From assembly GCA_017882375.1 (NCBI GenBank), contig JADGPP010000001.1:1-64000 (forward strand): a stretch of 64,000 bases of DNA, in the 5' to 3' direction. The DNA is from Solirubrobacteraceae bacterium (GTDB lineage Bacteria > Actinomycetota > Thermoleophilia > Solirubrobacterales > Solirubrobacteraceae). The notes beneath the pieces are model-generated. The model searched no databases. It was not told the origin of the DNA and saw only the letters and a list, made by a program, of their open reading frames with translations. Position numbers and translations under genes: made by a program. How positions within the stretch are numbered: position 1 is the first letter of the stretch; every line of letters starts with the position of its first letter. Of this stretch, positions 1 through 17,174 are shown piece by piece.

Positions 1-126
1 GAGCGAGCGGTAGCCCTCACCGATGATCGCTGAGTGGTGGGCGAATAGGTCCTTGGACTGGTCGTCGGGCGTGATGAACCCGAAGCCCTTGTCGTCGCTA
101 AACCACTTCACTGTACCTGTAGCCAT
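1..126 (-). CDS. Cold-shock protein (CspA family), 3' part cut off by window edge
   Basis: The first 42 codons of a cold-shock-domain protein read leftwards off the window. The visible N-terminus has the family signature: [18 protein letters not shown], followed by a TPDD segment and DLFAHHSAI, so both RNA-binding motifs RNP1 (KGFGFI) and RNP2 (DLFAHHS) are present. Family members are small (about 65-70 residues) single-stranded RNA/DNA-binding OB-fold proteins that act as RNA chaperones in the cytoplasm. The start is fixed by a strong Shine-Dalgarno sequence (GGAGG) about seven bases upstream at 132-138. The C-terminal third is missing only because the window ends. Family assignment is firm; the paralogue type cannot be told. 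Confidence 0.93.
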
Positions 127-291
127 TGTATTTCCTCCGTCGTTGAGAAGTGCTGCGAACGCGGAAATTGCTGAGCAAAGGCTACGAGCGCTGGCACTAC
201 GTTGTTGGGCAAAGCACCCAACTTGAGTCATCAACGGTAGCAGCAACGCCATAAGCGCTCGTCTGGCCGCGATGACAGAGCGTCGCGGGTT

Positions 292-314
292 GGAGGTCGC
301 GGCTCCACGTGAGG
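292..314 (+). repeat. Short island repeat, type GGAGGTCGCGGCTCCACGTG
   Basis: A roughly 23-bp sequence that recurs with small changes at 982-1004, 9496-9518 and 10766-10786, always in the same orientation and always beside a toxin-antitoxin gene or remnant. It resembles the T-arm part of the tRNA-Asp gene at 17.1 kb (shared GGTCGCGG core), but only weakly. The rest of 127-360 holds nothing I can recognise. Confidence 0.55.
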
Positions 315-360
315 AGGTCCCGCTCTTTCAAGCCTTTCAGATCGGGATCGGCGGCCAAGA

Positions 361-470
361 ATGGCAATCCGCAGATATCCGGTGTCTCTAACTTGGGATG
401 CGCCGACGGTGATCTCGTCGCCGGCACGTAGACCCGCAGCGTGCATCGCCTCCACTGGGGTAGCAGGGTG
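361..470 (-). pseudogene. Remnant of an AbrB/MazE-type antitoxin gene
   Basis: Read on the minus strand, this stretch encodes VEAMHAAGLRAGDEITV, nearly the same as the swapped-hairpin core VEAMRAAGLHAGDEITV of the intact AbrB-type antitoxin at 11219-11437. The N-terminal strand of the fold is missing: instead of the usual 'NQVTIP' lead-in the sequence upstream runs into a G-run at 480-488. After the core the frame continues into unrelated sequence. No partner toxin gene is left next to it. I read it as an inactive fragment of a second vapB-like gene; it is too short to fold as the usual AbrB dimer unit. Confidence 0.6.
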
Positions 471-491
471 CCCGCCACCCGGGGGGGGGCG

Positions 492-776
492 TCAGGACTC
501 GAGTTCGAGCTTCAGCTCACACATGTCCACGGAGGCGCGGGCGCCCGGGGTCTCGGAGGCGTCCATCGCGTTGAACGCTTGGGCGCCTGCGCTCATGTCA
601 TCAGCCGTTGCAAAGTGCTGGAGGACCACCGCTGTGCCCTGCGCCTCGTCGAACAGCATCGTCAAGCCTGTGGAGGGCACGCCAGGAGGTGTACCCTCGG
701 ACTCCTTTACGCGCGCCAGCAGCCCCTCCATCCGCTCGGCGCTCACATCGGTGAACCTCACGACACGCACATACAT
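492..776 (-). CDS. Small ABM-like (dimeric alpha-beta barrel) protein
   Basis: A 94-residue protein beginning MYVRVVRFTDVSAERM and continuing with an amphipathic helix, a 'TMLFDEAQGTAVVLQHFAT' strand pair and a final DMCELKLELE strand. This alternation is that of ferredoxin-like dimeric alpha-beta barrel proteins of the antibiotic-biosynthesis-monooxygenase superfamily, which range from heme or quinol monooxygenases to non-enzymatic members. No catalytic residue can be assigned. The ATG at 776 was chosen over one 13 codons upstream because AGGAGG lies seven bases before it (782-790). It stands alone between two decayed antitoxin/toxin fragments. Confidence 0.7.
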   Translation of the reverse strand: MYVRVVRFTDVSAERMEGLLARVKESEGTPPGVPSTGLTMLFDEAQGTAVVLQHFATADDMSAGAQAFNAMDASETPGARASVDMCELKLELES

Positions 777-882
777 GGAGAACCTCCTCGCGTTCGGTAG
801 GCAGCAAACATACACCGATGCAACGCGCAGCAGGGAAGAATCGTAGGCGTGGAGCGGCTGGCACCGGTGGTGCCTCTATGAG

Positions 883-975: not shown

Positions 976-981
976 CAGACC

Positions 982-1042
982 GGAGAGGTCGCGGCTCCAG
1001 GTGAACTCAAACGCTCGTTGAATACCCCATCGAGATCCGCGT
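982..1042 (+). repeat. Island repeat R1 (GGTCGCGG ... CCCCATCGAGATCCGCG)
   Basis: A composite of the 23-bp GGAGAGGTCGCGG type and the second recurrent block ACCCCATCGAGATCCGCG. The second block reappears at about 12321, 13171, 13961, 14366 and 15149, all as direct repeats. It lies exactly at the 3' breakpoint of the vapC fragment. Confidence 0.6.
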
Positions 1043-1181
1043 CCTTGAGGAAGAGAACGCTGGCACAAGCGACGGCTACGTCCGTCCGCCGCATCTCGCG
1101 GGTAACTACGGTAGCCCTGGCGGGTGTCGGCGCCGACAGATCTAGGAGATACCGGGCTCTCCGGTTCGATGACAGGACGTC

Positions 1182-3962
1182 ATGCGCCGATCACGCCGAC
1201 CCCCCCAACGCATTCAAGAGCGCGCGCGTCTGCCGCGGCGCTGGCCCATCCGGCAGCTGACGAGCGTGGCGGCGATCGCGGCGTTCGGCGTGCTCACGGT
1301 CATGCACGCCGGGAACGCGCCGGTGTGGACCGCGTTCGACGACATCGGGGAGGCGCTGGCGGCGAGCGTCGCGACCGTGGCTTGCGTGGCGCGGGCGAGA
1401 CGGGAGCGTCGCGCGCGCGATACGGCGACCGACGGGGGACGCGCGTGGATCCTGTGGTCGCTGCTCGCGGCCGGCGCCGGCGCGTGGGCGGTCGGCCAGG
1501 TCGGCTGGAGCGTGTACGAGGTCGGGCTCGGGTCGGCCCCGCCGGCGGTCTCGGCGCTGGACGTCGCCTTCCTCGCCTTCCCGATACTTGTGGTCGCAGG
1601 CCTGTTGACGATGGTGCAGACGCCGGCCGGGCGGTTGTCGCAGCTGCGCGGAGCGGCCGAGGGGCTGTTCATAGCCGCTGGCTTCTTGCTGCTCAGCTGG
1701 AGCCTGATCGTCGGCTCGGTGCTGGCGAAAACGGAGTCGTCGACGCTGCTCAAAGAGATGGTCAACCTGGCCTATCCCGCACTCGACGCCGTCGCGCTCG
1801 CCGCAATGCTATTCATCGCCCTGCGGCGCAAGGACGACCCGCCCCGCGGCCTCGGCCTGCTCGCCCTCGGCATCGCCTGCGTGGCGCTGTCGGACTCGTC
1901 CTTCTGGTACCTCAGCGCGGTCAACCCCAGCTTCCCGGGAGCCACGGCGCTCGACACGGGCTGGGTCGCGGGGTTCCTGCTGATCGCTCTGGCGGCGCTG
2001 TCCTCCGGCCGCAGGCGCGTTGGCCGGAGGCGGCTGTCGGATCGCAGGGCTCTGCTGATGGCGCCGGTGCTGCCCGCCGCCCTCGGGACGCTGGTGATGC
2101 TGGCCCGCTGGCTGAGCGGCGGCAGCCTCGGGTCCGAGGGAGCACTCCTGACGATCACAGCGGCGCTCGTGATCCTCGCGATCGTGCTGCAGACAGTCGT
2201 CACCTATGAGAACCATGCGCTCACAACCGATCTGGAGGGCCGGGTGCAGGAGCGCACAGCCGAGCTGCATGCGACCGAGCGCTACTACCGCGCGCTCGTG
2301 CAGCACGCCTCGGATGTGGTGATCGTGGTCGATCCCGATCTGGGGATCCGCTACGTCAGCGACTCGGTCCACGATGTCTTTGGCTATCGGCCCACTGGGC
2401 TTCAAGGACGCGATCTGAGCGCCTTCGGGCGGGTCGCCGCGGAGACGCTGGCCGAGGCGCTCAACATGGCGGTGCTCGCTCCCGGGCAGATCACGCGGGT
2501 CGAGTGGCTGCTGAACGACGCCGCCGGGCGCGCGCGCCACGCCGAGTCGACGGTCACCAACCTCCTCGCCGATCCTCATGTAGAAGCGTTCGTGCTGAAC
2601 ACGCGCGACGAGACCGACCGCATAGCGCTTCAGGATCAACTGCGCCACCAGGCGTTCCACGACCCGCTGACGGGCCTGTCAAACCGCGCTCTGCTCGGCG
2701 ACAGGGCCTCGCAGGCGTTCGCCCGCTCGCTGCGAACGGGAAACAGCGTCGCCGCCATCGTGATCGACCTCGACGCGTTCAAGCTGGTCAACGACAGCCT
2801 CGGCCACCAGGTGGGCGACGCGCTTCTGCGCGACGTCGCGCAGCGGCTGCAGTCCGTAGCGCGTCCGGAGGACACCGTGGCCCGTATCGGCGGGGATGAG
2901 TTCCTCGTGCTGGTCGACGCCGTCGGCTCCGACGAGGAGGCACTGACGCTAGCCGGGCGTTTTTACGATGCCCTGAGCTCCCATTTCGATCTGGATGAGA
3001 TCGAGCATCGCGTCACGACCAGCATCGGGGTGGCCGTCGGCTCGGCGTCGAAGACGAACTTCGAGCAGCTGTTGAGCGACGCCGACATGGCGATGTACTC
3101 GATCAAGGCCAGCGGCAAGGACGCCGTCCAGCTGTTCCAGCCGAGCATGCACAAGCAGGCCCGTGAGCGCTTCCGGCTGCAGGCCGATCTCGGCAAAGCG
3201 CTGGAACGCAACGAGTTCTGGCTGCTCTACCAGCCGGAGTTCGGCGTGACCGGGGAGCGGCTGGACGGATTTGAGGCGCTCATCCGTTGGAACCATCCCA
3301 TCCATGGCCTTGTGCGACCGGACCGGTTCATCCCACTCGCCGAGGAGAGCGGGATGATCGTGCCACTCGGCCGGTGGGTGCTCCTGGAGGCCCTGCGACA
3401 GGCCGTGACGTGGGAGCAGGTCGGTGCAGGAGCCGAGCCTTTGAGTATCTCGGTGAACATTTCCGCGGTGCAGCTCAACGCGCCTAGCCTGCTCGCCGAC
3501 GTTAAGCACGCGCTGGAGCAGTCGCAGATCCGCCCCGCGCGGGTCGTCCTCGAGATCACCGAGCAGTCGCTCGTCGAGGACTCCCATACCGTCATAGGCG
3601 TCCTGCATGCACTCAAGGAGCTCGGAGTGCGTCTCGCGATCGACGATTTCGGGACCGGCTATGCGTCCCTGTCCTATCTGCAGAGCATGCCGGTCGACAT
3701 CCTGAAGATCGACCGGACGTTTGTGAAGGCTAGCGACGACGGCGAGCACGGTCGCGAGCTTCTCGAAGCGATCGTCGGGATCGGCCGCAGCCTCTCGCTT
3801 CTCACGATCGCCGAGGGCGTCGAGGAGCCCGACCAACTGGCGACTGTGCGGGACATGGGCTGCGACCTTGCTCAGGGCTATCTGCTCGGCCGGCCGCTGC
3901 CGATCGAGGAGGCCCAGAGCCTGATCGCCGAGTACGCCACCGCCAGCGTTGTGAATCATTGA
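1182..3962 (+). CDS. Membrane-bound PAS-GGDEF-EAL cyclic-di-GMP protein
   Basis: A 926-residue protein with a multi-helix membrane sensor region (roughly residues 25-350), a coiled segment, one PAS domain (about 365-480), a GGDEF domain and an EAL domain. The diguanylate cyclase signature GGDEF is intact at 570-574 and is preceded by an RPED inhibitory I-site at the normal spacing. The phosphodiesterase domain has EAL at 698-700, a DDFGTGYASL loop near 821 and the later EGVE and QGYLLGRP motifs, so both activities look possible on sequence alone. Known bifunctional proteins usually have one dominant activity. The ATG at 1182 gives a basic cytoplasmic tail before the first membrane helix; a later start is possible. 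The gene is monocistronic, followed by island debris. Confidence 0.92.
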   Translation: MRRSRRPPQRIQERARLPRRWPIRQLTSVAAIAAFGVLTVMHAGNAPVWTAFDDIGEALAASVATVACVARARRERRARDTATDGGRAWILWSLLAAGAGAWAVGQVGWSVYEVGLGSAPPAVSALDVAFLAFPILVVAGLLTMVQTPAGRLSQLRGAAEGLFIAAGFLLLSWSLIVGSVLAKTESSTLLKEMVNLAYPALDAVALAAMLFIALRRKDDPPRGLGLLALGIACVALSDSSFWYLSAVNPSFPGATALDTGWVAGFLLIALAALSSGRRRVGRRRLSDRRALLMAPVLPAALGTLVMLARWLSGGSLGSEGALLTITAALVILAIVLQTVVTYENHALTTDLEGRVQERTAELHATERYYRALVQHASDVVIVVDPDLGIRYVSDSVHDVFGYRPTGLQGRDLSAFGRVAAETLAEALNMAVLAPGQITRVEWLLNDAAGRARHAESTVTNLLADPHVEAFVLNTRDETDRIALQDQLRHQAFHDPLTGLSNRALLGDRASQAFARSLRTGNSVAAIVIDLDAFKLVNDSLGHQVGDALLRDVAQRLQSVARPEDTVARIGGDEFLVLVDAVGSDEEALTLAGRFYDALSSHFDLDEIEHRVTTSIGVAVGSASKTNFEQLLSDADMAMYSIKASGKDAVQLFQPSMHKQARERFRLQADLGKALERNEFWLLYQPEFGVTGERLDGFEALIRWNHPIHGLVRPDRFIPLAEESGMIVPLGRWVLLEALRQAVTWEQVGAGAEPLSISVNISAVQLNAPSLLADVKHALEQSQIRPARVVLEITEQSLVEDSHTVIGVLHALKELGVRLAIDDFGTGYASLSYLQSMPVDILKIDRTFVKASDDGEHGRELLEAIVGIGRSLSLLTIAEGVEEPDQLATVRDMGCDLAQGYLLGRPLPIEEAQSLIAEYATASVVNH

Positions 3963-4075
3963 TGGCAGTGCATTGTGCGGCGAGGTTGTCGAGGATCTCG
4001 GGTAGCCCTTGACTAACGCGATGTCCGGCTCGAGGCTCCGAATGGGGTCGGGTCCGGACGTTGCACATCGTGAAA

Positions 4076-4112
4076 TCGAGATCCGTGTTGCATCACCTTG
4101 AGCCCGCGACCC
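4076..4112 (+). repeat. Island repeat R2 at the truncated end of the GNAT gene
   Basis: Contains ATCGAGATCCGTG followed by GAGCCCGCGACCCC, related to the ATCGAGATCCGCG and CCCGCGACCTCTG blocks found in R8 (14286-14389) and, for the latter, in the tRNA-Asp gene. It overlaps the abnormal C-terminus of the GNAT reading frame on the other strand. Confidence 0.5.
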
Positions 4113-4548
4113 CCGAATCGCCTGCGAACAATGCTCGTCCGATCCCGGTTCGCTGTCGAGCAGGATCCACGTACAAGCGGTGAATGTGGCCGACCCGTCG
4201 GGGGTCGTCATCATCGTCCTCGGTCGGCCCGTATTGGCAGAGGCCGGCGATGCGACCATCGCATCTCGCGGCCAGCACCCCACCGCCTAGCGCCCTTTGG
4301 CGGCGCACGACGTCAGCCCAGCCTCGCACCCGGTGGATGGCGAGCTGCTTGCAATACCACGCGTCCGGCACACGGCCTCGATAGGTCACCGCCCACGTCG
4401 CTACATGAAGGTCATGTAGACCCTCCCCGTCGGCTGGACGTGCCGCCACGATCTCCACGCAACGGAGCTTGCCAGGCCCGGCTCCGACGGTCGGCGCCCG
4501 AATCGCCCGTGAACTCCGGTCGCGATTGGCCCTGCGCATGTTCGACAC
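4093..4548 (-). pseudogene. GNAT N-acetyltransferase gene, 3' end lost
   Basis: The recognisable GNAT domain starts near 4458 (EIVAARPADGEGLHDLHVATW, probably from a GTG there) and runs to motif A, HIHRLYVDPARQRTGIGRAL, the acetyl-CoA pyrophosphate-binding loop. Ordinary family members continue for another 40 or so residues with the motif B strand and helix. Here the frame passes directly into repeat R2 and ends at 4093, so the last part of the fold is missing. A five-aspartate run (EDDDDDP) precedes motif A. It is most likely inactive. The flanking doc remnant on the same strand suggests a shared history of deletion. Confidence 0.75.
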
Positions 4549-4582
4549 CTCATCGAAATCAGGGCGAGCGGCTCACGACGCT

Positions 4583-4750
4583 CTATCTGATGCGTTGCGC
4601 CCGCGCGCGCACGAGCGCCGCGACCTGCTCTCGCGTGGCGCCAGCGCTGAAGCTGAGTATCCAATCTGCCAACTCGCGGTCCGATGCTTCGACACGCGAG
4701 CCGTTGATCTCGAGGAATAGCTCGCTCCCGCCGGGCCGGTCCTCGGCCAT
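4583..4750 (-). pseudogene. Doc toxin gene with an in-frame internal deletion
   Basis: This 55-codon frame joins the first residues of a Doc toxin (MAEDRPG) to its C-terminal helix region (NGSRVEASDRELADWILSF and ARAQRIR). Compared with the intact 137-residue Doc at 13202-13615 it lacks about 82 residues, including the whole Fic-type catalytic motif; both ends are otherwise clearly homologous. The frame is preserved, with an ATG and a TAG stop, three bases downstream of its antitoxin gene. It cannot be a working toxin. Whether the short product is made, and still binds the antitoxin, is open. Confidence 0.85.
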
Positions 4751-4753
4751 GCG

Positions 4754-5002
4754 CTACCCCTGAGAGGAGTCGGGGTCGTCGTCGGCGAGGATCTGGAGCG
4801 CCTCGCCGTGCTCGGCGACGACGCGCTCGCCTATCTCGTGAATGCGCTCGCGAACCTTCTCGGTGGACATGATCCGCAGCTCGCCACCCGGAAGCTCCTC
4901 GACCAGCACCGAGGTACCAGGGGCGTAGCCCTGCGCCTCAAACTCCCTAGGGATCGAGATTACGTTGCTGTTGCCGACTCGACGTACCTTAACGACCTTC
5001 AT
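4754..5002 (-). CDS. AbrB-like antitoxin, orphaned copy of the Doc partner
   Basis: An 82-residue protein starting MKVVKVRRVGNSNVISIP, the N-terminal swapped-hairpin DNA-binding fold of AbrB/MazE-type antitoxins, followed by an acidic helical tail (ERVVAEHGEALQILADDDPD) that would contact the toxin. It differs from the paralogue at 13619-13867 at only six positions by my count. Its partner doc has been gutted (4583-4750), so this is an orphan antitoxin that could still repress its own promoter and neutralise or cross-regulate the second Doc. The start at 5002 is set by alignment with the paralogue and by a -10 box six bases upstream; the longer upstream frame has no support. Confidence 0.87.
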   Translation of the reverse strand: MKVVKVRRVGNSNVISIPREFEAQGYAPGTSVLVEELPGGELRIMSTEKVRERIHEIGERVVAEHGEALQILADDDPDSSQG

Positions 5003-5008
5003 GAGTCC

Positions 5009-5036
5009 AGTATATACACGGATAGCCGATAGATGG
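5009..5036 (-). promoter_or_regulatory. Probable leaderless promoter/operator of the orphan antitoxin
   Basis: On the minus strand a TATACT -10 box lies six bases before the ATG, the spacing expected for a leaderless transcript. The core GTATATAC is self-complementary, as expected for an AbrB-dimer operator, and is preceded by GGCTATCCGT. The same arrangement occurs in front of the paralogue at 13868. No convincing -35 is visible here. Confidence 0.5.
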
Positions 5037-5330: not shown

Positions 5331-5347
5331 CGATCGACCAAAGTCAT

Positions 5348-7446: not shown

Positions 7447-7461
7447 GGTGGAGGGGTGTCA

Positions 7462-8070: not shown

Positions 8071-8079
8071 GAGCGCCAC

Positions 8080-8832: not shown

Positions 8833-9069
8833 ATGCGCAAGACCAGCGTCTACCTAGATGATGAGCAGGCCGAGCGCCTTGCTCGCCTCGCGCGCCAAGA
8901 GGGCCGCTCACAGGCCGACATCCTGCGCGAGGCCGTCGCGACTTATGAGCCCCCGGCATCGCACGATCGCCACTTCGAGATCGCCGCCGGCTTCCCCCGA
9001 ACCGATGTTGATTCGCGCCCGATTTCGCAGATTCCTGACGAGGAGCTTCTAGCAGGCTTCGGCAGTTGA
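8833..9069 (+). CDS. Ribbon-helix-helix antitoxin (VapB-like)
   Basis: A 78-residue protein beginning MRKTSVYLDDEQAERLARLA, a beta strand plus helix typical of CopG/Arc-type ribbon-helix-helix DNA-binding antitoxins; GRSQADILREAV forms the second helix. The C-terminal part (SRPISQIPDEELLAGFGS) would wrap the toxin. It overlaps the downstream vapC by four bases (TTGA), the classic antitoxin-toxin arrangement. The dimer is expected to repress the operon and to neutralise the PIN toxin. Confidence 0.9.
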   Translation: MRKTSVYLDDEQAERLARLARQEGRSQADILREAVATYEPPASHDRHFEIAAGFPRTDVDSRPISQIPDEELLAGFGS

Positions 9070-9488
9070 CGCTGCTGATCGACGCCGCCCCGATCGTGGC
9101 GCTCGCCGACCCCGACGAGCCACATCGCGAGAGCATCCTCGCCACGCTTAGAGACGAGCCGGGCGACCTCGTCATGCCAGCCCCGACGACCGCCGAGGTC
9201 GACTACCTCCTTGGCCAGCGCTTCGGTCAGGCCGCTCGTCGCGCGTTGCTGAACGACCTTGCACGCGGCCGCTTCAAGATCGCTTGCCTCGAGCGCGAGG
9301 ACTACAACACGATCATCGACCTCGACGCGCGCTACGCCGACCTGGGCCTCGGCCTTGCCGATTGCGCACTCGTCGCGCTCGCCGAGCGCCACCGCACCAC
9401 ACGCATACTCAGCTTCGATGAGCGACACTTCCGCGCCGTCACGCCACTCGACGGTGAGGCGTTCACGATTCTGCCGGCTGACGGCTGA
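9066..9488 (+). CDS. VapC-type PIN-domain ribonuclease toxin
   Basis: A 140-residue PIN-domain protein. The four acidic residues expected in the Mg-dependent active site are present: Asp6 (LLIDAAPIV), Glu44 (TTAEVDYLL), Asp99 (GLADCALVA) and Asp118 (LSFDERHF). VapC toxins cleave tRNA or rRNA and stop translation when the antitoxin is degraded. The TTG start at 9066 overlaps the antitoxin stop; no other in-frame start keeps Asp6. A broken copy of the middle of this gene is found at 883-975. Confidence 0.92.
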   Translation: MTLLIDAAPIVALADPDEPHRESILATLRDEPGDLVMPAPTTAEVDYLLGQRFGQAARRALLNDLARGRFKIACLEREDYNTIIDLDARYADLGLGLADCALVALAERHRTTRILSFDERHFRAVTPLDGEAFTILPADG

Positions 9489-9565
9489 TTGGATAGGAGA
9501 TGTCGCGGTTCCACGTGGGGTTGTGGCCTGAGCTCGGTCGAGTAAGGCGCCGCTAGGATCCGCCG

Positions 9566-10249: not shown

Positions 10250-10558
10250 TCAGTCGAGATCAAACGCAGCTCGAATCGCCTCACCGAGCTGCGGCTCCTA
10301 ATCATCGAGCAGCACACCGATCTGATCTCGCAACGCCTCGGTTGGAATCGTGGTGATGTTGTCGCAGCTCACGACCGACGGTCTCGAGAGTCCGTTCGCC
10401 GCATCAACGTGCACCTAGGTGGAGAGTCCACGAATGGTGGTCGTGATCGGCGCGACTGTGACCGTCACCAGATGTGGGCGCACAAGCTCACGCGTGAGAA
10501 CCAGCACCGGCCGCGCCTTGTCAAGCTGCGCGACGTGGATTGGGCGCCGACGCGGTCT
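10250..10558 (-). pseudogene. MazF/PemK-type toxin gene with two in-frame amber stops
   Basis: On the minus strand one frame reads RPIHVAQLDKARPVLVLTRE, then VTVAPITTTIRGLST, a TAG, VDAANGLSRP, SVVSCDNITTIPTEALRDQI, LLDD, a second TAG, then EPQLGEAIRAAFDLD and TGA. This is the full length of a MazF-like endoribonuclease, with the usual 'DKARPVLVL', 'TIRGL' and 'CDNI.TI' landmarks. Each TAG replaces a residue that is often Glu or Gln, so single base changes (GAG or CAG to TAG) explain both. No start codon or antitoxin gene is convincing upstream. It is a recently disabled gene, since frame and motifs are otherwise intact. Confidence 0.82.
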
Positions 10559-10765: not shown

Positions 10766-10840
10766 GGAGGTCGCGGATCCAAGCCAACATGGATCCGCGA
10801 GGGGTCGAGCCCAGAATTTGCACCGGGGATCGAGATCAGC
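10766..10840 (+). repeat. Island repeat R3
   Basis: Starts with GGAGGTCGCGGATCCA (first repeat type) and ends with GGGATCGAGATCAGC, related to the ATCGAGATCCGCG block. It abuts the 3' end of the vapC at 10854 on the other strand. A short inverted pair (GGATCC .. GGATCC) lies inside. The DNA between 10559 and 10765 has no recognisable gene. Confidence 0.45.
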
Positions 10841-10853
10841 AGGTGAGCACGGT

Positions 10854-11231
10854 CTAGCTCCGCGCGAGCCGCGAGAGGCGACGGTCGTAGCTCAATAGTC
10901 TCCCGCCGAGGTCTCGTGCAGTGGCGAGGACGATTGCGTCGGGAAGGCGCAGACGGTCGTGGCTCGCTCGAAGCTCGGCCGCCTGCTCGGCGATCCTGTC
11001 ATTGAGAGGCACGATCGAGATACCCATCGCGGTGATCGCTCGGCGCGCCTCGTCGAGGCGCCGCGCCCGAGCAAAGGCGACTAGCGTCTCGCTGTAAGCG
11101 CTCGCGGGAAGCAATAGCTGATGGCCTTCGCTGTCTGCAACTTCAACGTCGTCGACCGCCCGATTGTGATGACGGTCTGCGGTATCAAGCAGACCGATCA
11201 GCACGCTTGCGTCGAGGATCAGCGCTTCCAC
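10854..11231 (-). CDS. VapC-type PIN-domain ribonuclease toxin (second locus)
   Basis: A 125-residue PIN protein with Asp7 (LILDASVLIGLL), Glu48 (SAYSETLVAF), Asp98 (LPDAIVLATA) and Asp116 (LLSYDRRL) as the probable Mg-binding quartet. It is unrelated in detail to the VapC at 9066, so this is an independent module. The ATG overlaps the upstream AbrB-type antitoxin gene by 13 bases, which couples translation. Expected role: site-specific RNA cleavage held in check by the antitoxin. Confidence 0.92.
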   Translation of the reverse strand: MEALILDASVLIGLLDTADRHHNRAVDDVEVADSEGHQLLLPASAYSETLVAFARARRLDEARRAITAMGISIVPLNDRIAEQAAELRASHDRLRLPDAIVLATARDLGGRLLSYDRRLSRLARS

Positions 11232-11437
11232 TCGTCGCGCAGCCGCTCGAGTTCGCCATCTTTGTAGATGCCCGCCGCGATGCCCGCATGGCGCCGGACT
11301 CGCGAGCCTCTGGTGGCGATGACGATCTCGCCCTCGCCGGCGGGACGCACCGTGATCTCGTCCCCGGCGTGCAGTCCGGCAGCACGCATCGCCTCGACCG
11401 GGATCGTGACTTGATTCTTGGAGGAGACTCTCGGCAT
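11219..11437 (-). CDS. AbrB-type antitoxin of the VapC at 10854
   Basis: A 72-residue protein with the swapped-hairpin AbrB core: MPRVSSKNQVTIPVEAMRAA, then AGDEITV and a strand EIVIATRGS, followed by a helical tail ELERLRDEWKR for toxin binding. The remnant at 361-470 is a close relative. It lies upstream of and overlaps its toxin gene. The inverted repeat at 11440-11468 immediately before the ATG is the likely autoregulatory site. Confidence 0.88.
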   Translation of the reverse strand: MPRVSSKNQVTIPVEAMRAAGLHAGDEITVRPAGEGEIVIATRGSRVRRHAGIAAGIYKDGELERLRDEWKR

Positions 11438-11468: not shown

Positions 11469-11550
11469 GTCTAGCGAAACAGCCACGTCGTGCCCGTCAG
11501 TGTTTTCACTTGGCGCCCCCGAAACTGGGGGCAAAACGAGGCTAAAAGAG

Positions 11551-11580
11551 CGGGAGCGACGAGGGTCGAGGCCTCGTTCT
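11551..11580 (+). repeat. Island repeat R4, tRNA-Asp-like
   Basis: CGGGAGCGACGAGGGTCGAG matches the 3' end of the tRNA-Asp gene (17101-17120 on the plus strand reads CGGGAGCGACGGGACTCGAA) with few changes and the same orientation, then continues GCCTCGTTC as in R8 and R9. Just upstream a strong hairpin (GCCCCC, loop GAAACT, GGGGGC, about 11511-11532) is flanked by GTTTT and AAAAC. Confidence 0.55.
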
Positions 11581-11623: not shown

Positions 11624-11887
11624 TTATCGGGGGTCGTGGCGATACGCGACTGAGCGATGTCGAATCGCCACGACGCAAACTGTTCTCTCGGCCTCGGCGA
11701 GCTGGTAGATGATGCGGTAAGTGCCGACGCGTAGCGAGCGCAGTCCCCTCAACCGCCCACGTAGCGCGTAGCCGGCCAGCGGATCGCGTTCGAGGAGCCC
11801 GAGCGCGTCCTGTATGGCATCGATGAGCGGCCGGTTGAACTCGAGTAGCTCACCTCGAGCGCGCCGCGCGACGACGACGCGTGCCAC
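11624..11887 (-). CDS. RelE/ParE-family toxin
   Basis: An 87-residue protein with the compact RelE/ParE pattern: an N-terminal strand VVVARRARGELLEF, a helix pair ending LLERDPLAGYALRG, then LRSLRVGTYRIIYQ and a final strand TVCVVAIRHRSVAY. The central Arg of 'LRVGTYRI' and the terminal basic residues fit ribosome-dependent mRNA interferases, although ParE-type gyrase poisons share this fold. It starts with GTG three bases after the Phd-type antitoxin gene, so the two form an operon. Confidence 0.87.
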   Translation of the reverse strand: MARVVVARRARGELLEFNRPLIDAIQDALGLLERDPLAGYALRGRLRGLRSLRVGTYRIIYQLAEAERTVCVVAIRHRSVAYRHDPR

Positions 11888-11890
11888 CGC

Positions 11891-12175
11891 TCAACGCGTC
11901 GAGCGGTGGGCATCGAGCTCGACGCGAAGATCCGCGAGCGTGACGACCTCCCCGCGCGAGAGCTCTGCAAGACCGGCTTCGATAGCCGCGAGTGTCTCAG
12001 AGTCGGACAGGATTTCCGCCGTCTCCTCAAGGGCGTCGTACTCGTCGATTGGAACGAGCGCAGCGGCCGGCTTTCCGTTGCGGGTCACCAGCACGTGATC
12101 GCGACGATCGGCGACATCGCTCAGCAGGGCGCTGAGATTGGTCCGGAACTCACGGACTGGCACCGTCTTCGCCAC
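11891..12175 (-). CDS. Phd/YefM-family antitoxin
   Basis: A 94-residue protein starting MAKTVPVREFRTNLSALLSD with HVLVTRNGKPAAALVPIDEY, the signature of Phd/YefM antitoxins: an N-terminal DNA-binding dimerisation domain and a disordered C-terminal half that wraps the toxin (here ELSRGEVVTLADLRVELDAH). It precedes the RelE/ParE gene by three bases and is expected to repress the operon together with the toxin. Confidence 0.9.
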   Translation of the reverse strand: MAKTVPVREFRTNLSALLSDVADRRDHVLVTRNGKPAAALVPIDEYDALEETAEILSDSETLAAIEAGLAELSRGEVVTLADLRVELDAHRSTR

Positions 12176-12183
12176 TTAGCAAA

Positions 12184-12334: not shown

Positions 12335-12394
12335 GCGCCCAACAACAGTGATCCTCAGTTACCTTCGCGGGCCCGCCTGCCCCCTCATGTCGCT

Positions 12395-13081
12395 TCAGAT
12401 GGGCAGGAAGACCACATAGTCGCGTAGGCGCGCAACCTGGTTCCCTGGCAGGTCGAGCACAATGCCGAGATCGTCAAGGGATGCGAAGCCATCAATTTCT
12501 TCGCGCGTTTTGACGAGACGTCGAGCCAGGTCGGCGTCGAAGTTGGGAAGACAAGCAAGAACCTCGACCGGCGCGTGATTGATGTCGACGACGCCTCCGT
12601 CGAACGCTCCGGGCAGGTCCGGGCGGCCCACGCCAGCCTCAACGGCCAGCCGCGGATCCTCACGTGCCAGCGTGAGCGCCTTCTCGTGCTGTGCCAGACG
12701 GTCGCGCGCGGCGACAAGGCGTGCATCGTCGGAGTGGGTGAGATGTGCGAGGTGATCATGCAGCCAACGCATCACGTCCATCCAGAGCCGCTGGTCGGCT
12801 ACCACGTCGTACTTGATGCGCCGATTGGGCGCCGGAAGGGGCAGCTCAGAAGCGTGAGTTGATGGGATCGAAATGTCGACCCCGTGCTCATGGATCGACG
12901 TCACCAGTTCAGCCGCGAGGAATCGATCGCCGTGACCGGTTGCTAGCACCAAGCCGTCAAAGATGTCCTCGCCCGGATCGCAGAGCACCTCCTGGACCTT
13001 GCCGGCGACGCCGCCGTCTGAGCCGAAGACCGGCGTGTCCTTGGCGAGCAGCAGATAGGAGCTCGGCGGACCCTCGTCCAT
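12395..13081 (-). CDS. PRC-barrel and helix-hairpin-helix protein
   Basis: A 228-residue protein. The N-terminal 75 residues (YLLLAKDTPVFGSDGGVAGK, EVLCDPGEDIFDGLVLATG, LAAELVTSIHEHGVDISI) resemble a PRC-barrel/YlmC-type beta domain. A central alpha-helical part follows. The C-terminus (VVDINHAPVEVLACLPNFD, DLARRLVKTREEIDGFASLD) is a ComEA-like pair of helix-hairpin-helix motifs ending DYVVFLPI. HhH pairs bind DNA backbone without sequence preference. I cannot name a known family with both parts. The ATG at 13081 starts at the PRC-like domain; the frame extends 17 codons further upstream but into repeat R6. Confidence 0.6.
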   Translation of the reverse strand: MDEGPPSSYLLLAKDTPVFGSDGGVAGKVQEVLCDPGEDIFDGLVLATGHGDRFLAAELVTSIHEHGVDISIPSTHASELPLPAPNRRIKYDVVADQRLWMDVMRWLHDHLAHLTHSDDARLVAARDRLAQHEKALTLAREDPRLAVEAGVGRPDLPGAFDGGVVDINHAPVEVLACLPNFDADLARRLVKTREEIDGFASLDDLGIVLDLPGNQVARLRDYVVFLPI

Positions 13082-13126
13082 GCCGAGCCACCATAACGGC
13101 AACCGGAGCACAGAGACCCCAGAAAC

Positions 13127-13189
13127 AGACAATAGGTCGCGGTCCCTCGCGGAATGAGAGCCTTGTCGTAGACCCCATCGAGATCCGCG
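13127..13189 (+). repeat. Island repeat R6
   Basis: ACAATAGGTCGCGGTCCCTC then GACCCCATCGAGATCCGCG. The ACAATAGGTCGCGGTC start is shared exactly with R9 (15070 onward). It lies between the PRC/HhH gene start and the doc gene stop. Confidence 0.6.
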
Positions 13190-13201
13190 CTCACGACGCG
13201 G

Positions 13202-13615
13202 CTATTTGATGAGATGCGCCCGCGCGCGCACGAGATCCGCAACCTGCTTCGGCGTGGCCCCTGCGCTGAAGCTGAGTATCCAATCTGCCAGTTCGCGATC
13301 CGTCGCCTCGACACGCAAGCCGTTGACCTCAAGGAATGTCAGCATCGCAACGAGAGCCGTGCGCTTGTTGCCATCGATGAACTGCTGACCCTCTGCGATC
13401 GCGTGAGCAAGCGCAGCGGCCTGATGTGCAAGGTCGGCGTCCTCATAGTTAGCGTAGGCAGCGGGGCGCGCGAGCGCACTTTCGAGGCCACCGCGGTTCC
13501 GCAACTGATTCGCTGCCTGGGTCGAACTCGCGCCGATGATCAGTCCATGCAAGCTCAAGACATCCTCGAGCGAGAGGTAGACCGGTTCCGTATCGCCGGG
13601 CCGATCCTCGGCCAT
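13202..13615 (-). CDS. Doc (Fic-fold) toxin with Gln at the catalytic His position
   Basis: A 137-residue protein of the death-on-curing family: YLSLEDVLSLHGLIIG at the start, the helix LAHQAAALAHAIAEG, and the Fic-type motif QQFIDGNKRTALVAM. Doc proteins phosphorylate EF-Tu through the motif HxFx(D/N)xNK(R); here the leading His is Gln (QQF), while Phe, Asp, Gly, Asn, Lys and Arg are kept. The C-terminal half (VNGLRVEATDRELADWILSF) is shared with the deleted copy at 4583-4750. It follows its antitoxin gene by three bases. Either the toxin is inactive, or this subfamily works differently; the motif was read directly from the DNA. Confidence 0.85.
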   Translation of the reverse strand: MAEDRPGDTEPVYLSLEDVLSLHGLIIGASSTQAANQLRNRGGLESALARPAAYANYEDADLAHQAAALAHAIAEGQQFIDGNKRTALVAMLTFLEVNGLRVEATDRELADWILSFSAGATPKQVADLVRARAHLIK

Positions 13616-13618
13616 GCG

Positions 13619-13867
13619 TCAACCCTGAGAGGCGTCGGGGTCGTGATCGGCGAGGATCTGGAGTGCCTCACCGTGCTCGGCCACGACGCGCTCGCCTATC
13701 TCGCGGATGCGCTCGCTGACCTTCTCGGTGGAGATGATCCGCAACTCACCACCCGGAAGCTCCTCAACCAGCACCGAGGAGCCAGGGGCGTAACCCTGCG
13801 CCTCGAACTCCCTCGGGATCGAGATTACGTTGCTGTTGCCGACACGACGTACCTTGACGACCTTCAT
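13619..13867 (-). CDS. AbrB-like antitoxin of Doc
   Basis: An 82-residue AbrB/MazE-type protein (MKVVKVRRVGNSNVISIP) with an acidic C-terminal helix, six residues different from the copy at 4754-5002. Doc in phage P1 pairs with Phd; here the partner has an AbrB-type DNA-binding domain, a known swap among TA families. ATG at 13867 with a TATACT -10 box six bases upstream points to a leaderless transcript and tight autoregulation. Confidence 0.88.
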   Translation of the reverse strand: MKVVKVRRVGNSNVISIPREFEAQGYAPGSSVLVEELPGGELRIISTEKVSERIREIGERVVAEHGEALQILADHDPDASQG

Positions 13868-13873
13868 GAAGAC

Positions 13874-13905
13874 AGTATATACACGGATAGCCCAGGTACA
13901 CAACG
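13874..13905 (-). promoter_or_regulatory. Leaderless promoter/operator of the AbrB-Doc operon
   Basis: Minus strand: TTGTGT, 18 bases, TATACT, six bases, ATG. The -10 box overlaps the palindrome GTATATAC, a natural site for an AbrB dimer, and is preceded by GGCTATCCGT exactly as before the orphan antitoxin at 5009-5027. Confidence 0.55.
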
Positions 13906-13936
13906 CCCGGTCGCGCATTCAGCTGGCCTCGCGATG

Positions 13937-13980
13937 CTTCGGAACCGAGCCCTCGTCGCAGACCCATCGAGATTCGGACG
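13937..13980 (+). repeat. Island repeat R7
   Basis: A weakened copy of the common block: GCTTCGGAACCGAGCCCTCG followed by CAGACCCATCGAGATTCGGA, upstream of the AbrB-Doc operon. Confidence 0.45.
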
Positions 13981-14055
13981 CGCCGGCACACTCTGAGGTC
14001 CGTGCGCTTGACCGAAGGGCTAGCGAAAGCTGGCACATGGCGCCATCATTGAGGC

Positions 14056-14256: not shown

Positions 14257-14285
14257 CATTCGCGGGGGGCGAGCGACCGCAGACA

Positions 14286-14389
14286 AAGGGTCGCGGGCTC
14301 TCTGGGGGTCGGGCCCGCGACCTCTGAAAAGCGGGAGCGACGGGGGTCGAGGCCTCGTTCGGCACCCCATCGAGATCAGGGGCGTTGGG
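14286..14389 (+). repeat. Island repeat R8 with two tRNA-Asp-derived 13-mers
   Basis: Contains CCCGCGACCTCTG (14314-14326) and CGGGAGCGACGGG (14332-14344). Both are exact 13-mers of the tRNA-Asp gene (17121-17133 and 17101-17113), in the same orientation but in swapped order, as expected if two partial tRNA-end copies lie in tandem. The second copy continues GGTCGAGGCCTCGTTCGGCA and CCCCATCGAGATC, the general island block. The region 14257-14415 has no gene. Confidence 0.7.
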
Positions 14390-14415
14390 CATTCCTTCAT
14401 CGACCGCTTCTGCGG

Positions 14416-14826
14416 TCAGCGACGCGATGAGGCTCGGGCGTCAGCGCTGCTGATCTGCCAGCGAACTCCTGGACCGAACTCGAGCACGACGCCAGCGGGA
14501 CTGATCAGTTCCCAATAGGGCGGATCGTCGTCAGCTTCGGCTGCAGCTGGCTTGATGTCGAGCACTGAGCCGTCCGAAAGCCTGCAGTGCAGCTCGCCAG
14601 ATTTCTCGTCGATCTCGGCGTCGTTGATCGAGCGCCCAACCAGCCGAGCCGGGTCAGACGGCGACCACTCTGCATCCTGAGTGGCCAGGCGCCACAGCTC
14701 TCCGTGTGCGTCCCGACCTTCAACGTGCAGTACATCCGGATAGGCCACACGCGCGTCGATGACTTCCCCGCGCAAGGAGCGCAGGACGGTCGTCGGTGAG
14801 GCATCTAGGGCTACGACGGTCGCCAT
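14416..14826 (-). CDS. Hypothetical protein with a DUF2442-like acidic strand pattern
   Basis: A 136-residue protein (MATVVALDASPTTVLRSLRG) with a long run of alternating strands (HVEGRDAHGELWRLATQDAE, SGELHCRLSDGSVLDIKP, GVVLEFGPGVRWQISSA). I do not recognise a named family with confidence. No signal peptide or membrane segment. The preceding gene overlaps it by 16 bases, so the two are co-expressed. An ATG four codons earlier (14838) is the alternative start; 14826 follows an AAGGAG. Confidence 0.55.
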   Translation of the reverse strand: MATVVALDASPTTVLRSLRGEVIDARVAYPDVLHVEGRDAHGELWRLATQDAEWSPSDPARLVGRSINDAEIDEKSGELHCRLSDGSVLDIKPAAAEADDDPPYWELISPAGVVLEFGPGVRWQISSADARASSRR

Positions 14827-15002
14827 GACTCCTTCCATTCTCGCAGCCAGGCCAGCAGTTCTCCATAGCTCATGTCCTCCCGCCCGCCGCCGGATTCCTT
14901 GTAGGCGTGTAGCGACTGACTCGCTTCATAGCGCTCATAGGCGGTCAGGCCCGCCTCCTTGCACGCCTGCCTGAATTGCTTGATGTCGCGCTTGCGGGTC
15001 AT
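14811..15002 (-). CDS. Small hypothetical protein, operon partner
   Basis: A 63-residue basic protein (MTRKRDIKQFRQACKEAGLT, AYERYEASQSLHAYKES, MSYGELLAWLREWKESW). It looks like a small helical domain with an aromatic C-terminus; I have seen similar short ORFs in island DNA of actinobacteria but no function is known. It precedes and overlaps the gene at 14416-14826, the size and order of an antitoxin-toxin pair, but neither protein resembles a known TA family. Confidence 0.5.
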   Translation of the reverse strand: MTRKRDIKQFRQACKEAGLTAYERYEASQSLHAYKESGGGREDMSYGELLAWLREWKESWRPS

Positions 15003-15065
15003 GGCCGGCGGCGAGCTTAGCTGTCGAAGCGGAGGCGATGGCCGGGGTCGCGCGCCAACTCGGCC

Positions 15066-15168
15066 TCAGACAATAGGTCGCGGTCTCTCTGGGGGTTGGG
15101 GCCTCGTTTGGCACCCCATCGCCTTCTGGGGGTCGAGCCCTCGTTTGGCACCCCATCGAGATCCGCAC
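15066..15168 (+). repeat. Island repeat R9, tandem double copy
   Basis: Two tandem units: TCTGGGGGTTGGGGCCTCGT TTGGCACCCCATCG and TCTGGGGGTCGAGCCCTCGT TTGGCACCCCATCG, the second followed by AGATCCGCAC. Preceded by ACAATAGGTCGCGGTCTC as in R6. The remaining part of 15003-15411 has no recognisable gene. Confidence 0.7.
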
Positions 15169-15358
15169 GAGAAGTGGACCCACAACGAACATCGCCGCTC
15201 GCTAAGGGACGCGACCTCCGCCGGGCCCCTTGATGGCTCCTTTTCACGCGAAAGCGATCACACGGGCGGGGCGTCGCGCTCCTGCTGGTCGTCCTATGCG
15301 AGCGTGAGCAAGGCCTTGCGCAGACGCTCGCTCGGCCAGCAAAGCACAAGCGCCGAAC

Positions 15359-15389
15359 GGTGGCCTTTTACCCGCAGGCACAGGCCACC
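15359..15389 (-). terminator. Possible terminator hairpin after the Gly-rich gene
   Basis: GGTGGCC and GGCCACC form a 7-bp stem with a 17-base loop 23 bases beyond the stop codon of the gene at 15412. There is no T-run, which is common in high-GC genomes, so this is only a candidate. Confidence 0.3.
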
Positions 15390-15411
15390 ATCCGGCCTGT
15401 CTAGTGGCAGC

Positions 15412-16776
15412 CTATTCGAAGCTGACCGCTGATCCGCTGAATGTGCCTGCCTTGACTGGTTTCGCGGCTTTTTTGCCTACTTTTTCGCCGCACGTCGCCC
15501 CACCCGTAAAGCTCTCCGTGGCCGTCCCCGAGAGCGTCAAGGGGGAATACGAGCCGGCCGTGACCGCGCCCGATAGCGCCACAGCAGGCGTTTCGGTCAG
15601 AAGCATCCCAAGCGTCCCCGTCGCTTTCGAGGGTTTCGCTTTCGGCGTCCATTTGTATGTCGCGGCCCCGGATGCAGGTTCGCCCGCCCCTTTCAGCACC
15701 GAGCAGGACACCGCAACGGCAGTTTTCAGCGTCGCGGTGTAGGCGACCGTCGTGAACGGGTCACCCGTGCAGCCCGACAGGGTGCCCTTGATCTTCACCG
15801 TCTGGACCGCAGGTGTGCTTGTGAGGCCCGGTGAGAGCTTGATCGTGCCGCTGTTGGTGGTGCATGTGGCCTTCGGGACCGTGTAGGTGATCAGCACCTC
15901 CTGCGGATCGGTCGTGTCGGCTGCGACGCTGGTGTTCGTGGCTCCGGGGGCGTAGTAGCTGGACCCGGCCCCGCCACCGCCACCGCCGTTGTTGCTGCCG
16001 CCGCCACCGCCTCCGCCCCAATAGCCCCCGCCACCGCCGCCACCACCAACGCAGTTGACTTCGGCGCCGCCGCCGAATCCATCGCCGCCGCGTCCTTCGC
16101 TGCCGTCGCCGCCGCGGCAGCGCGTGCCTTCTCCTACATAAGAGCCGCCTTTGCCGCCAGTGTTCTCTCGGCCACCGCCACCGCCGGTCGCCTGAAGAAA
16201 CAGGTCGCCAGGGTTCGTTCGGCAATCACCGATCAACCCCGTCGTCGCGTTGGTGCCCGCTTCGCCTTCCAGCGCATCGGCGCTTCCGCCGCTGCCGGCT
16301 TCTATGCATCCAGCCGGCGCGTACTGGTAGTTGCTACCACCTCCGCCACCGCCGCCAGCTACGACCAGCCGCGATTTGAGGTTGCTCCCTTCGGTGCGCA
16401 CGTCTGAGGCACCGCCCCCTTCGCCTCCGGCCGGGAGACACAGGTCGGCTGCTCCGCCCGCCCCGCCGCCACCGAAGTGGATGTAAAGCGGCTTCGCTTC
16501 GCTCACCGCGAGCGTCGCGGCGACCTTTGCGCCCGCGCCCCCGGGGTAGGTGTGGCCGCCAGCACACGTGTTACCCGGCGCGCCTTTACCGCCGATGGCA
16601 GCCACCGTGACCCGTGTCACGCCTACCGGCACCGCGAAGGACTGTTCAGAGCCGCCCGTGGCGAGGAACGTTTCCGTCTTGGTTTCCGCGAACGCGCTCA
16701 CGCTGGAGGCAAGCACCCCCACAGCCACCAGCACCAGCAGAGCACCCAACTGGACGAAACGACCGTGAAGCCGCAT
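15412..16776 (-). CDS. Secreted glycine-rich protein
   Basis: A 454-residue protein with a clear signal peptide (MRLHGRFVQLGALLVLVAVG, cleavage after VSAFA). Residues about 35-65 resemble a jelly-roll start (TFLATGGSEQSFAVPVGVTR), then about 230 residues very rich in Gly with many GGGGGG runs and scattered Cys. The last 130 residues (CTTNSGTIKLSPGLT ... GTFSGSAVSFE) match a secreted domain I know only from Thermoleophilia relatives. Likely a cell-surface or matrix protein; no catalytic motif. The ATG at 16776 has GGAGG-like sequence upstream and begins the signal peptide; the much longer upstream frame is not supported. It is next to the tRNA-Asp 3' end. Confidence 0.8.
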   Translation of the reverse strand: MRLHGRFVQLGALLVLVAVGVLASSVSAFAETKTETFLATGGSEQSFAVPVGVTRVTVAAIGGKGAPGNTCAGGHTYPGGAGAKVAATLAVSEAKPLYIHFGGGGAGGAADLCLPAGGEGGGASDVRTEGSNLKSRLVVAGGGGGGGSNYQYAPAGCIEAGSGGSADALEGEAGTNATTGLIGDCRTNPGDLFLQATGGGGGRENTGGKGGSYVGEGTRCRGGDGSEGRGGDGFGGGAEVNCVGGGGGGGGYWGGGGGGGSNNGGGGGGAGSSYYAPGATNTSVAADTTDPQEVLITYTVPKATCTTNSGTIKLSPGLTSTPAVQTVKIKGTLSGCTGDPFTTVAYTATLKTAVAVSCSVLKGAGEPASGAATYKWTPKAKPSKATGTLGMLLTETPAVALSGAVTAGSYSPLTLSGTATESFTGGATCGEKVGKKAAKPVKAGTFSGSAVSFE

Positions 16777-17100
16777 TAGGACTCCCTCCCCCTGTGGTAT
16801 GGCCTCGAGTCTCGCTCCGCGGCCCGTTAGCGCCGTAAAGCGCGCGGGGAGCGTATCACCGCCTCGTCGTTCGAGCGGGGCGTAGCGTCCGTGCGGGGTG
16901 ACCGATGCGGGCGAGAGTGCTCCTTTCCGCGCTAAGCGAGCGTCCGGGCCAACCGGCGCGAAGCTGTCGAGACGGACGAATAGCGAAAGTGCGCTGCTGA
17001 CGACTGGGACCGCCCGGACCGATGCACCCCATCTCGGCTTGCTGGATGGTGCCGAACGCGGGTGCAACCCCTTGGAAATCGCCATTTGCAGGCACTTCCA
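16777..17100. other. Gap without a gene at the island boundary
   Basis: About 320 bases between the Gly-rich gene and the tRNA-Asp 3' end. I see no gene, no integrase remnant and no clear repeat; it must contain the promoter of the Gly-rich gene. Confidence 0.5.
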
Positions 17101-17174
17101 CGGGAGCGACGGGACTCGAACCCGCGACCTCTGCCGTGACAGGGCAGCGCTCTAACCAACTGAGCTACGCCCCC
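17101..17174 (-). tRNA. tRNA-Asp (anticodon GTC)
   Basis: A 74-nt cloverleaf on the minus strand: acceptor GGGGGCG pairing with CGCTCCC (one G-U), D-arm GCTC..GAGC, anticodon loop CTGTCAC with anticodon GTC, T-arm GCGGG TTCGAGT CCCGT, discriminator G. CCA is not encoded. Its 3' end faces the accessory region and shares exact 13-mers with repeat R8, which makes it the likely former attachment site. Confidence 0.96.

What the first reader, a model, noticed from the sequence alone, without database searches (positions are those of the whole stretch)
1..17174. Eroded tRNA-Asp island packed with toxin-antitoxin genes and tRNA-derived repeats
Four complete TA pairs, four TA remnants, truncated GNAT and VOC genes and a cluster of small orphan genes lie in one 17-kb block that ends at the 3' side of tRNA-Asp. 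At least eight direct-repeat segments punctuate it. R8 holds two exact 13-mers of the tRNA 3' half (CGGGAGCGACGGG and CCCGCGACCTCTG) in swapped order. The breakpoints of vapC (975) and GNAT (about 4110), and possibly the extended PRC/HhH frame (13130), fall in or beside repeats. This pattern suggests repeated insertion at tRNA-Asp with later recombination between the scar repeats; TA genes may be the survivors because loss is selected against.
Basis: partly seen in the sequence, partly recalled or inferred. Interest (0 to 1): 0.75.

Follow-up and report, generated by a model that had tools for sequence, protein, structure and literature searches.

The report
Toxin-antitoxin cassette array at tRNA-Asp
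Next to a tRNA-Asp gene in an actinobacterium, a row of small one-gene or toxin-antitoxin units is separated by what look like footprints of a DNA-inserting enzyme (a serine integrase) that targets this tRNA, an arrangement that resembles an integron but with a different kind of enzyme.

Summary
The repeats are real: all strong copies lie on one strand within 1-17.2 kb, plus one on another contig. They are best read as attachment-site scars of a large serine integrase family that targets tRNA-Asp in Solirubrobacterales. Of eight such integrases found by protein search, six lie on loci with tRNA-Asp and four overlap it. Far ends of their elements join a tRNA 3' piece (B half) to the motif that forms the right half of the window repeats (P'). 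The 'swapped 13-mers' at R8 read as a P2.B' junction followed by a B.P' junction. Most window copies, however, have a non-tRNA left half (P2), otherwise seen in only one related species. In the right part of the block, units between scars are 0.3-0.8 kb and hold one gene or one TA pair. Some units recur elsewhere with scars: mazEF has scars on both sides in one relative and on one side on another contig here; an HTH/Gp49-like pair follows P' in two species; Doc/AbrB occurs twice here. TA-type units beside scars occur in three genera of two families. Closest precedent: Dehalococcoides ssrA islands.

The parts
17100..17175 (-). tRNA-Asp (GTC), proposed target site: B.B'
   Evidence: integrase genes of relatives run up to or into this gene
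981..1046 (+). att-like scar P2.P'
   Evidence: E 2.4e-13 in the genome
12272..12345 (+). att-like scar P2.P'
   Evidence: E 1.0e-18
13126..13193 (+). att-like scar P2.P' (exact P2 19-mer)
14277..14325 (+). att-like scar P2.B' (right half is the exact tRNA 13-mer CCCGCGACCTCTG)
14327..14388 (+). att-like scar B.P' (exact tRNA 13-mer CGGGAGCGACGGG, then P')
15067..15121 (+). att-like scar P2.P' (P' cut short, exact P2 19-mer)
15123..15170 (+). core.P' directly behind the previous scar
13941..13981 (+). decayed scar, core.P'
   Evidence: E 0.0015
11547..11580 (+). decayed scar, B half with one mismatch
   Evidence: E 0.035
10768..10850 (+). weak scar candidate, P2-like.P'-like
   Evidence: (E 0.18), weak
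4028..4090 (+). weak scar candidate, P'-like
   Evidence: (E 0.32), weak; the GNAT fragment ends beside it
4516..4570 (+). decayed P' beside the second Doc/AbrB copy
   Evidence: E 0.0008; E 0.06
9490..9535 (+). weak P2-like half behind the PIN gene
   Evidence: (E 1), weak
285..345 (+). weak P2-like half
   Evidence: (E 0.9), weak
8833..9488 (+). RHH antitoxin + PIN toxin
10253..10546 (-). mazF pseudogene (two in-frame stops, no antitoxin); DNA 97% to contig C111, 84% to G002
10854..11437 (-). VapBC-type pair (PIN; MazE/AbrB-like antitoxin)
11624..12175 (-). ParE toxin + Phd/YefM antitoxin unit
12395..13132 (-). PRC-barrel/HhH protein unit
13202..13918 (-). Fic/Doc toxin + AbrB-like antitoxin unit; homology with the second copy starts within a few bases of the end of P'
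4571..5027 (-). second, truncated Doc/AbrB copy (85-91%)
14416..15002 (-). DUF6188-like protein + 63-aa ORF unit
   Evidence: DUF6188 below cut-off; the 63-aa ORF has no family

Best explanation
The block is an array of DNA units delimited by attachment-site scars of a large serine integrase family that recognises the 3' end of tRNA-Asp in Solirubrobacterales. An incoming circle carries an attP made of a left arm (in integrase-bearing elements the end of the integrase gene plus a copy of the tRNA 3' end) and a right arm P' (core GGGGTCGAACCC, then about GTTTGGCACC..ATCGAGATCCG). Recombination with the tRNA restores the tRNA and leaves a B.P' scar at the far end. Further insertions and deletions stack units and leave hybrid junctions (P.P', B.P', P.B') in one orientation on the 3' side of the tRNA. 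Units can be as small as one gene or one TA pair next to P'. In the window no integrase of the family is left. Shown by comparison: the scars, their halves, their orientation, integrases beside them in relatives, and units shared between contexts. Inferred: the recombination reaction, its crossover point, and that an integrase acting in trans or in older elements placed the integrase-less units.
For: Scars: nine hits at E < 0.01 in the genome, eight of them here. Integrase: P0001 has Resolvase, Recombinase and Zn_ribbon_recom domains and matches solved serine recombinases such as A118 and TP901-1 integrases. Nine relatives found by protein: one distant (26%) was set aside; of the eight at 65% or more, tRNA-Asp was detected on 6 of 8 loci, the integrase match overlaps it in 4, one ends in a partial tRNA 3' copy, one runs straight into core+P'; 5 of 8 loci also carry a scar, one of them weak (E 0.0076). 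Elements with scar, integrase and tRNA-Asp in order: L036, L154 and, with the weak scar, L163. Junction: L036 13383-14347 and L075 10696-11660 are 90% alike over 968 bp starting at GGGGTC of the core, with unrelated left halves. Orientation and side 16 of 16. Genomes with this integrase or a fragment at 50% identity or more (9 of 232; matches at E <= 1e-20 only) have scars at E <= 0.001 in 7 of 9, others in 18 of 223, Fisher p = 2.3e-6. Shared units: mazEF in L075, L079 and L150 and as a mazF pseudogene in the window; Doc/AbrB twice in the window. Small TA units beside scars: G117, Phd and ParE plus a 76-aa ORF in 0.96 kb between scar and tRNA-Asp; G079, a ParE-type toxin frame and a 75-aa ORF without family in 0.65 kb between scar and a tRNA 3' copy.
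Against: No match of 50% identity to this integrase in the own genome, which is a 96% complete draft (best 29%), and no remnant in the window island by tblastn. Some scars lie far from any tRNA-Asp: in the one-contig genome G117 two of four have none on the 19-kb stretch around them, and the fetched stretches of G000:C111, G002:C30, G007:C259, G019:C207 and G023:C137 show none. Five of the six window scars at E <= 0.001 lack the tRNA-like left half. The DNA directly left of the window tRNA-Asp (CATTTGCAGGCACTTCC) is not the integrase-type arm of relatives; similar flanks occur in G014 and G019. A dyad between left and right half is significant in 2 of 9 type-2 sites only. Selection bias: the loci outside the window were mostly found with a model that contains both halves, so the 31 of 41 with a tRNA-like half is not an unbiased rate. 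A P'-only pattern was not diagnostic.
Confidence: 0.8

Rival explanations
1. Eroded tandem islands: ordinary integrase-bearing elements of several to tens of kb accreted at tRNA-Asp, then deletions (partly between scar repeats) removed integrases and cargo; TA pairs remain because their loss is harmful or simply because they sat next to P'. No special cassettes exist. (This shares the integrase and scars with the best explanation and concerns the origin of the small units.)
For: Integrase 3' remnants at or beside scars or the tRNA in L036, L139, L143, L146, L147 and L075; elements of about 20 and 87 kb in G077; PIN, GNAT and mazF remnants in the window, the first two ending beside sites.
Against: Units of 0.65-0.96 kb with hardly more than a TA pair between scar and tRNA or tRNA copy in two families; several right ends of window units share a specific P2 half (exact or one mismatch in two species) rather than diverse integrase ends.
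Confidence: 0.5
2. Integrase-less gene cassettes: each unit is a non-autonomous circle with its own attP (P2.P' or mimic.P'), integrated in trans by the serine integrase, so that the array works like an integron.
For: One gene or TA pair per unit with scars on both sides (window 11.5-15.1 kb; L075 8984-9756); same units in different contexts; P2 half shared by two species.
Against: No excised form seen; no integrase of the family found in the own genome; exact or near-exact P2 in two species only; erosion explains most of the data.
Confidence: 0.3
3. The repeats are intergenic regulatory or structural elements (terminators, REP-like) unrelated to integration.
For: Most lie between genes (12 of 14).
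Against: One orientation, tRNA halves, integrase ends fused to them, 16 of 16 on the 3' side of tRNA-Asp.
Confidence: 0.03
4. A chromosomal integron with attC sites.
For: One-gene units, TA-rich, same orientation.
Against: 0 of 47 sites have the RYYYAAC...GTTRRRY arrangement, 3 of 47 have a GTTRRRY at all (box consensus recalled); 0 of 24 genus genomes have an integron integrase over the cut-off, though all 24 and all 14 controls ring below it.
Confidence: 0.01

Closest known systems
Dehalococcoides ssrA-specific genomic islands (DsiB serine recombinase), PMC3146451
   Same: Serine recombinase; tandem islands downstream of a tRNA-like gene with 20-bp repeats of its 3' end; 15 islands without an integration module (passages read).
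   Different: Target there is tmRNA and the enzyme is CcrB-like; islands carry dehalogenases; here the target is tRNA-Asp and units are as small as one TA pair. How the two enzymes are related was not tested.
SCC elements of staphylococci (Ccr serine recombinases)
   Same: Tandem elements at one gene end by serine recombinases, including elements without their own recombinase (recalled; the DsiB-CcrB relation was read).
   Different: Different target gene, enzymes and scale (recalled).
Tandem tRNA-gene islands with tyrosine integrases (Islander, PMC4383910)
   Same: tRNA gene plus displaced 3' fragment with the island between.
   Different: [quoted passage not shown] here the integrase is a serine recombinase.
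Chromosomal integron
   Same: Array of one-gene, TA-rich units bounded by sites of one orientation.
   Different: No attC boxes, no integron integrase over the cut-off.

Membership tests
Tandem array of site-specific islands at a tRNA gene | Scars on the 3' side of the tRNA in its orientation, with pieces of its 3' end | tested here: met
   16 of 16 sites for side and orientation; in the window 14327, 11547 and, with B', 14277 carry tRNA pieces, most others do not
Tandem array of site-specific islands at a tRNA gene | Variable 3' flank, conserved opposite flank in relatives | tested here: met
Tandem array of site-specific islands at a tRNA gene | Each island has its own integrase (Islander's criterion for tandems) | tested here: not met
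   No integrase remnant of this family in the window island; an integrase is present in L036, L154, L163
Large serine integrase | Resolvase, Recombinase and zinc-ribbon domains | tested here: met
   P0001 of L036; no such gene in the window island
Large serine integrase | attP x attB recombination, directionality | not testable with these tools
   needs an assay
Integron | attC sites with R'' and R' boxes | tested here: not met
   0 of 47
Integron | IntI integrase | tested here: not met
   0 of 24 genomes over cut-off
Dehalococcoides-type ssrA island | Target is ssrA, DsiB/CcrB-like integrase | tested here: not met
   Target is tRNA-Asp; relation of the enzymes not tested

The most novel reading that the evidence does not exclude
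A serine-integrase counterpart of the integron: single genes and TA pairs carried as integrase-less circles with their own attP, captured in trans into an ordered array anchored at tRNA-Asp, with the tRNA serving as the common entry site across Solirubrobacterales.
Probability: 0.3. Interest if true: 0.85.

Novelty: new variant of a known kind. Interest (0 to 1): 0.6.

Why it matters
The Islander paper of 2014 lists no serine integrase that uses a tRNA gene (passages), although a tmRNA case had been described in 2011. Here half-sites (B, B', P, P') can be read from genomes, so enzyme and sites can be tested together and may become an integration tool for actinobacteria. The arrays also offer a test of why TA pairs collect in islands: survival during erosion, or transport as cargo.

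Tried and rejected
Dyad symmetry between the two halves (hoped for as an attP hallmark): 2 of 9 type-2 sites at p < 0.05 and 0 of 9 tRNA-type sites, so dropped. A P'-only pattern over 232 genomes hit 69 genomes against one hit of the reversed control; the motif also fits coding sequence, and I did not examine the hits one by one, so it was not used. The P2 pattern: apart from two exact and one 3-mismatch hit in this block and one 1-mismatch hit in G002:C30, all hits have 2-3 mismatches and are about as frequent as the reversed control. Integron reading tested and rejected. Carriers of the integrase: one distant relative (27%) in IMG/VR by a search that finds close relatives only, two in PLSDB (32-34%), 62 in INPHARED, all under 60% identity, ten of them listed at 31-33%; no phage or plasmid carrier was identified. 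TA enrichment beside P': PIN 3, PemK/MazF 2, Phd 1, RES 1, HEPN 1, NTP_transf_2 1 among 128 ORFs, against RES 1 and DUF433 1 (sometimes an antitoxin, recalled) among 136 control ORFs. Only the first 25 of 37 and of 40 families are listed; only the three longest ORFs per 1.2-kb stretch were taken; 4 repeated references of 132 and 3 repeated or nested ones of 139 were left out; the near set includes window ORFs. Suggestive only. Three of 50 profile hits were tRNA genes themselves and were removed before counts.

Literature: six searches were answered. In their listings I saw no report of such an array in Solirubrobacterales or of a tRNA-Asp serine integrase; the listings show only the top of up to 3,386 papers. 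I read passages of PMC4383910, PMC3146451, PMC12884075 and PMC4701971 and no paper in full.
Full report
Setting. The window is the start of contig 1 (99,267 bases) of a 3.57-Mb draft genome in 172 contigs. tRNA-Asp lies at 17100-17175 on the minus strand.

The repeats. A profile made from five copies finds nine at E < 0.01 in the window, all on + and all left of the tRNA, and none below E = 1 to the right of 17.2 kb. A sequence-only model from eight copies (six of the window, one each of L036 and L041) finds nine at E < 0.01 in the whole genome, eight here and one on contig C111. They sit between genes and cut the stretch 10.85-15.07 kb into units of 0.3-0.8 kb with one gene or one TA pair each; the last unit before the tRNA is 1.9 kb. 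The left part is looser: the sites at 285, 4028, 9490 and 10768 are weak, and 4516 is decayed.

What they are. In G016 (L036) a large serine integrase runs on + and its frame ends inside tRNA-Asp. A second, 94% identical copy of its 3' end lies 4.8 kb away and is followed by the tRNA 3' 13-mer and then by the right half of the window repeat. The same order, far scar, element, integrase, tRNA-Asp, appears in L154 and, with a weak scar (E 0.0076), in L163 (Patulibacter). In L165 integrase, tRNA-like core and P' are contiguous, as expected for attP or a tandem junction. So the repeats read as composites of half-sites: B and B' from the tRNA, P' shared by nearly all, and a left half that is either a tRNA mimic or a different sequence, P2. 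In the window 14327 reads B.P', 14277 reads P2.B', and 981, 12272, 13126 and 15067 read P2.P'. This accounts for the two exact 13-mers in swapped order at R8. Names of half-sites are mine; the assignment is by sequence, not by experiment.

How widespread. At E <= 0.001 the model hits 25 of 232 genomes of the order, in 9 of 54 genera, and 9 of 24 in the genus (strict filters, so weak sites are lost). In a set of 55 loci 50 profile hits at E <= 0.001 include three tRNA genes; 47 sites remain. Of these, 32 hold the tRNA 13-mer with at most one mismatch against 0.055 expected from shuffles: 31 of 41 outside the window and 1 of 6 in it. As the model contains the tRNA-like half and the loci were chosen with it, this rate is biased. 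Evidence less exposed to that bias is orientation and side (16 of 16 sites on loci with tRNA-Asp, 10 of them outside the window) and the integrase loci found by protein: of nine one is a distant relative of 26% that I set aside; of the other eight, tRNA-Asp was detected on 6, overlaps the integrase match in 4, lies about 0.1 kb off across a run of N in one (L164) and 1.8 kb off in one (L166); L161 ends in a partial tRNA copy and L165 in core+P'.

Integrase and scars go together: of 232 genomes 9 carry the integrase or a fragment at 50% identity or more, 7 of these have scars, against 18 of 223 others (Fisher p = 2.3e-6). The integrase count is a lower bound, since matches weaker than 1e-20 were not listed; fragments of 46-56% at L139, L143 and L147 are not in it.

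Units as units. L036 13383-14347 and L075 10696-11660 share 968 bp at 90%, starting at GGGGTC of the core, with unrelated left halves; the unit encodes an HTH protein and a weakly Gp49-like protein (E 0.0052, below cut-off), a plausible TA pair. mazEF occurs in L075 between two scars, on C111 behind one scar, in L150 without an adjacent scar, and in the window as a mazF pseudogene with two stops. Doc/AbrB occurs twice in the window, with homology starting within a few bases of the end of P'. G117 (one contig) has next to tRNA-Asp a 0.96-kb unit with Phd, ParE and a 76-aa ORF without family between scar and tRNA, preceded by a 1.7-kb unit that ends in an integrase remnant at a scar. G079 has, between a scar and a 47-nt tRNA-Asp 3' copy (length counted by eye), a 0.65-kb unit with a ParE-type toxin frame, for which I found no start codon, and a 75-aa ORF without family. 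Cargo is not only TA: GST (L075), glyoxalase (L147), AAA ATPase (L078, L154), potassium transporter (L146) and a polyketide-cyclase-like gene (L076) also lie beside P'.

P2. The exact 19-mer CAGACAATAGGTCGCGGTC occurs twice in the window, once more with 3 mismatches, and with 1 mismatch in G002:C30; all other hits in 232 genomes have 2-3 mismatches and are about as frequent as the reversed-pattern control. Shared right ends of units are what integrase-less cassettes would show, but two species are few.

Against. No integrase of this family was found in the own genome (best 29%). Scars away from tRNA-Asp exist (G117, two of four; stretches of G000:C111, G002:C30, G007:C259, G019:C207, G023:C137). 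The flank of the window tRNA is not integrase-like. The dyad test failed.

Known context. [quoted passage not shown] PMC3146451 (passages) describes tandem ssrA islands of Dehalococcoides with a serine recombinase and 15 islands without integration modules. The present array is thus a new variant of a known kind. The integron-like reading is kept as the novel case at 0.3.

Noticed in passing
window 17048-17071 (-): A 24-nt stretch about 30 bp from the tRNA 3' end resembles the core plus the start of P' in the opposite orientation (E 0.53 in the genome; E 0.9). Unexplained.
   Followed up: no
L038 559-608 and 17416-17465: In G014 a 50-bp, 94% copy of the tRNA-Asp 3' end lies 16.8 kb from the gene and lacks the P' motif by eye: another integrase may use the same tRNA. 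Two scars of the present family lie about 20 kb from the same tRNA (L081).
   Followed up: partly
L154 315-4081: Between scar and integrase lie an AAA ATPase (PF00004, 2e-29) and a subtilase (PF00082, 1.4e-22), which looks like a defence-type pair (function not tested).
   Followed up: partly
G077:C82 163-271 kb: Two integrases of the family in tandem, the first followed by a partial tRNA-Asp 3' copy, imply elements of about 20 and 87 kb.
   Followed up: partly
window 1182-3962 and 5348-8772: A PAS-GGDEF-EAL gene and a run of citrate-synthase C-terminal, AMP-binding, glyoxalase and GST genes sit inside the block; they look like larger cargo.
   Followed up: partly
window 15412-17085 (-): A glycine-rich protein without Pfam match fills the last unit before the tRNA; its frame is open almost to the tRNA.
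   Followed up: partly
G003:C85, G007:C75, G008:C244, G015:C92: Contigs of four relatives end within 0.6 kb of the tRNA-Asp 3' side, perhaps because assembly fails at this hotspot.
   Followed up: partly
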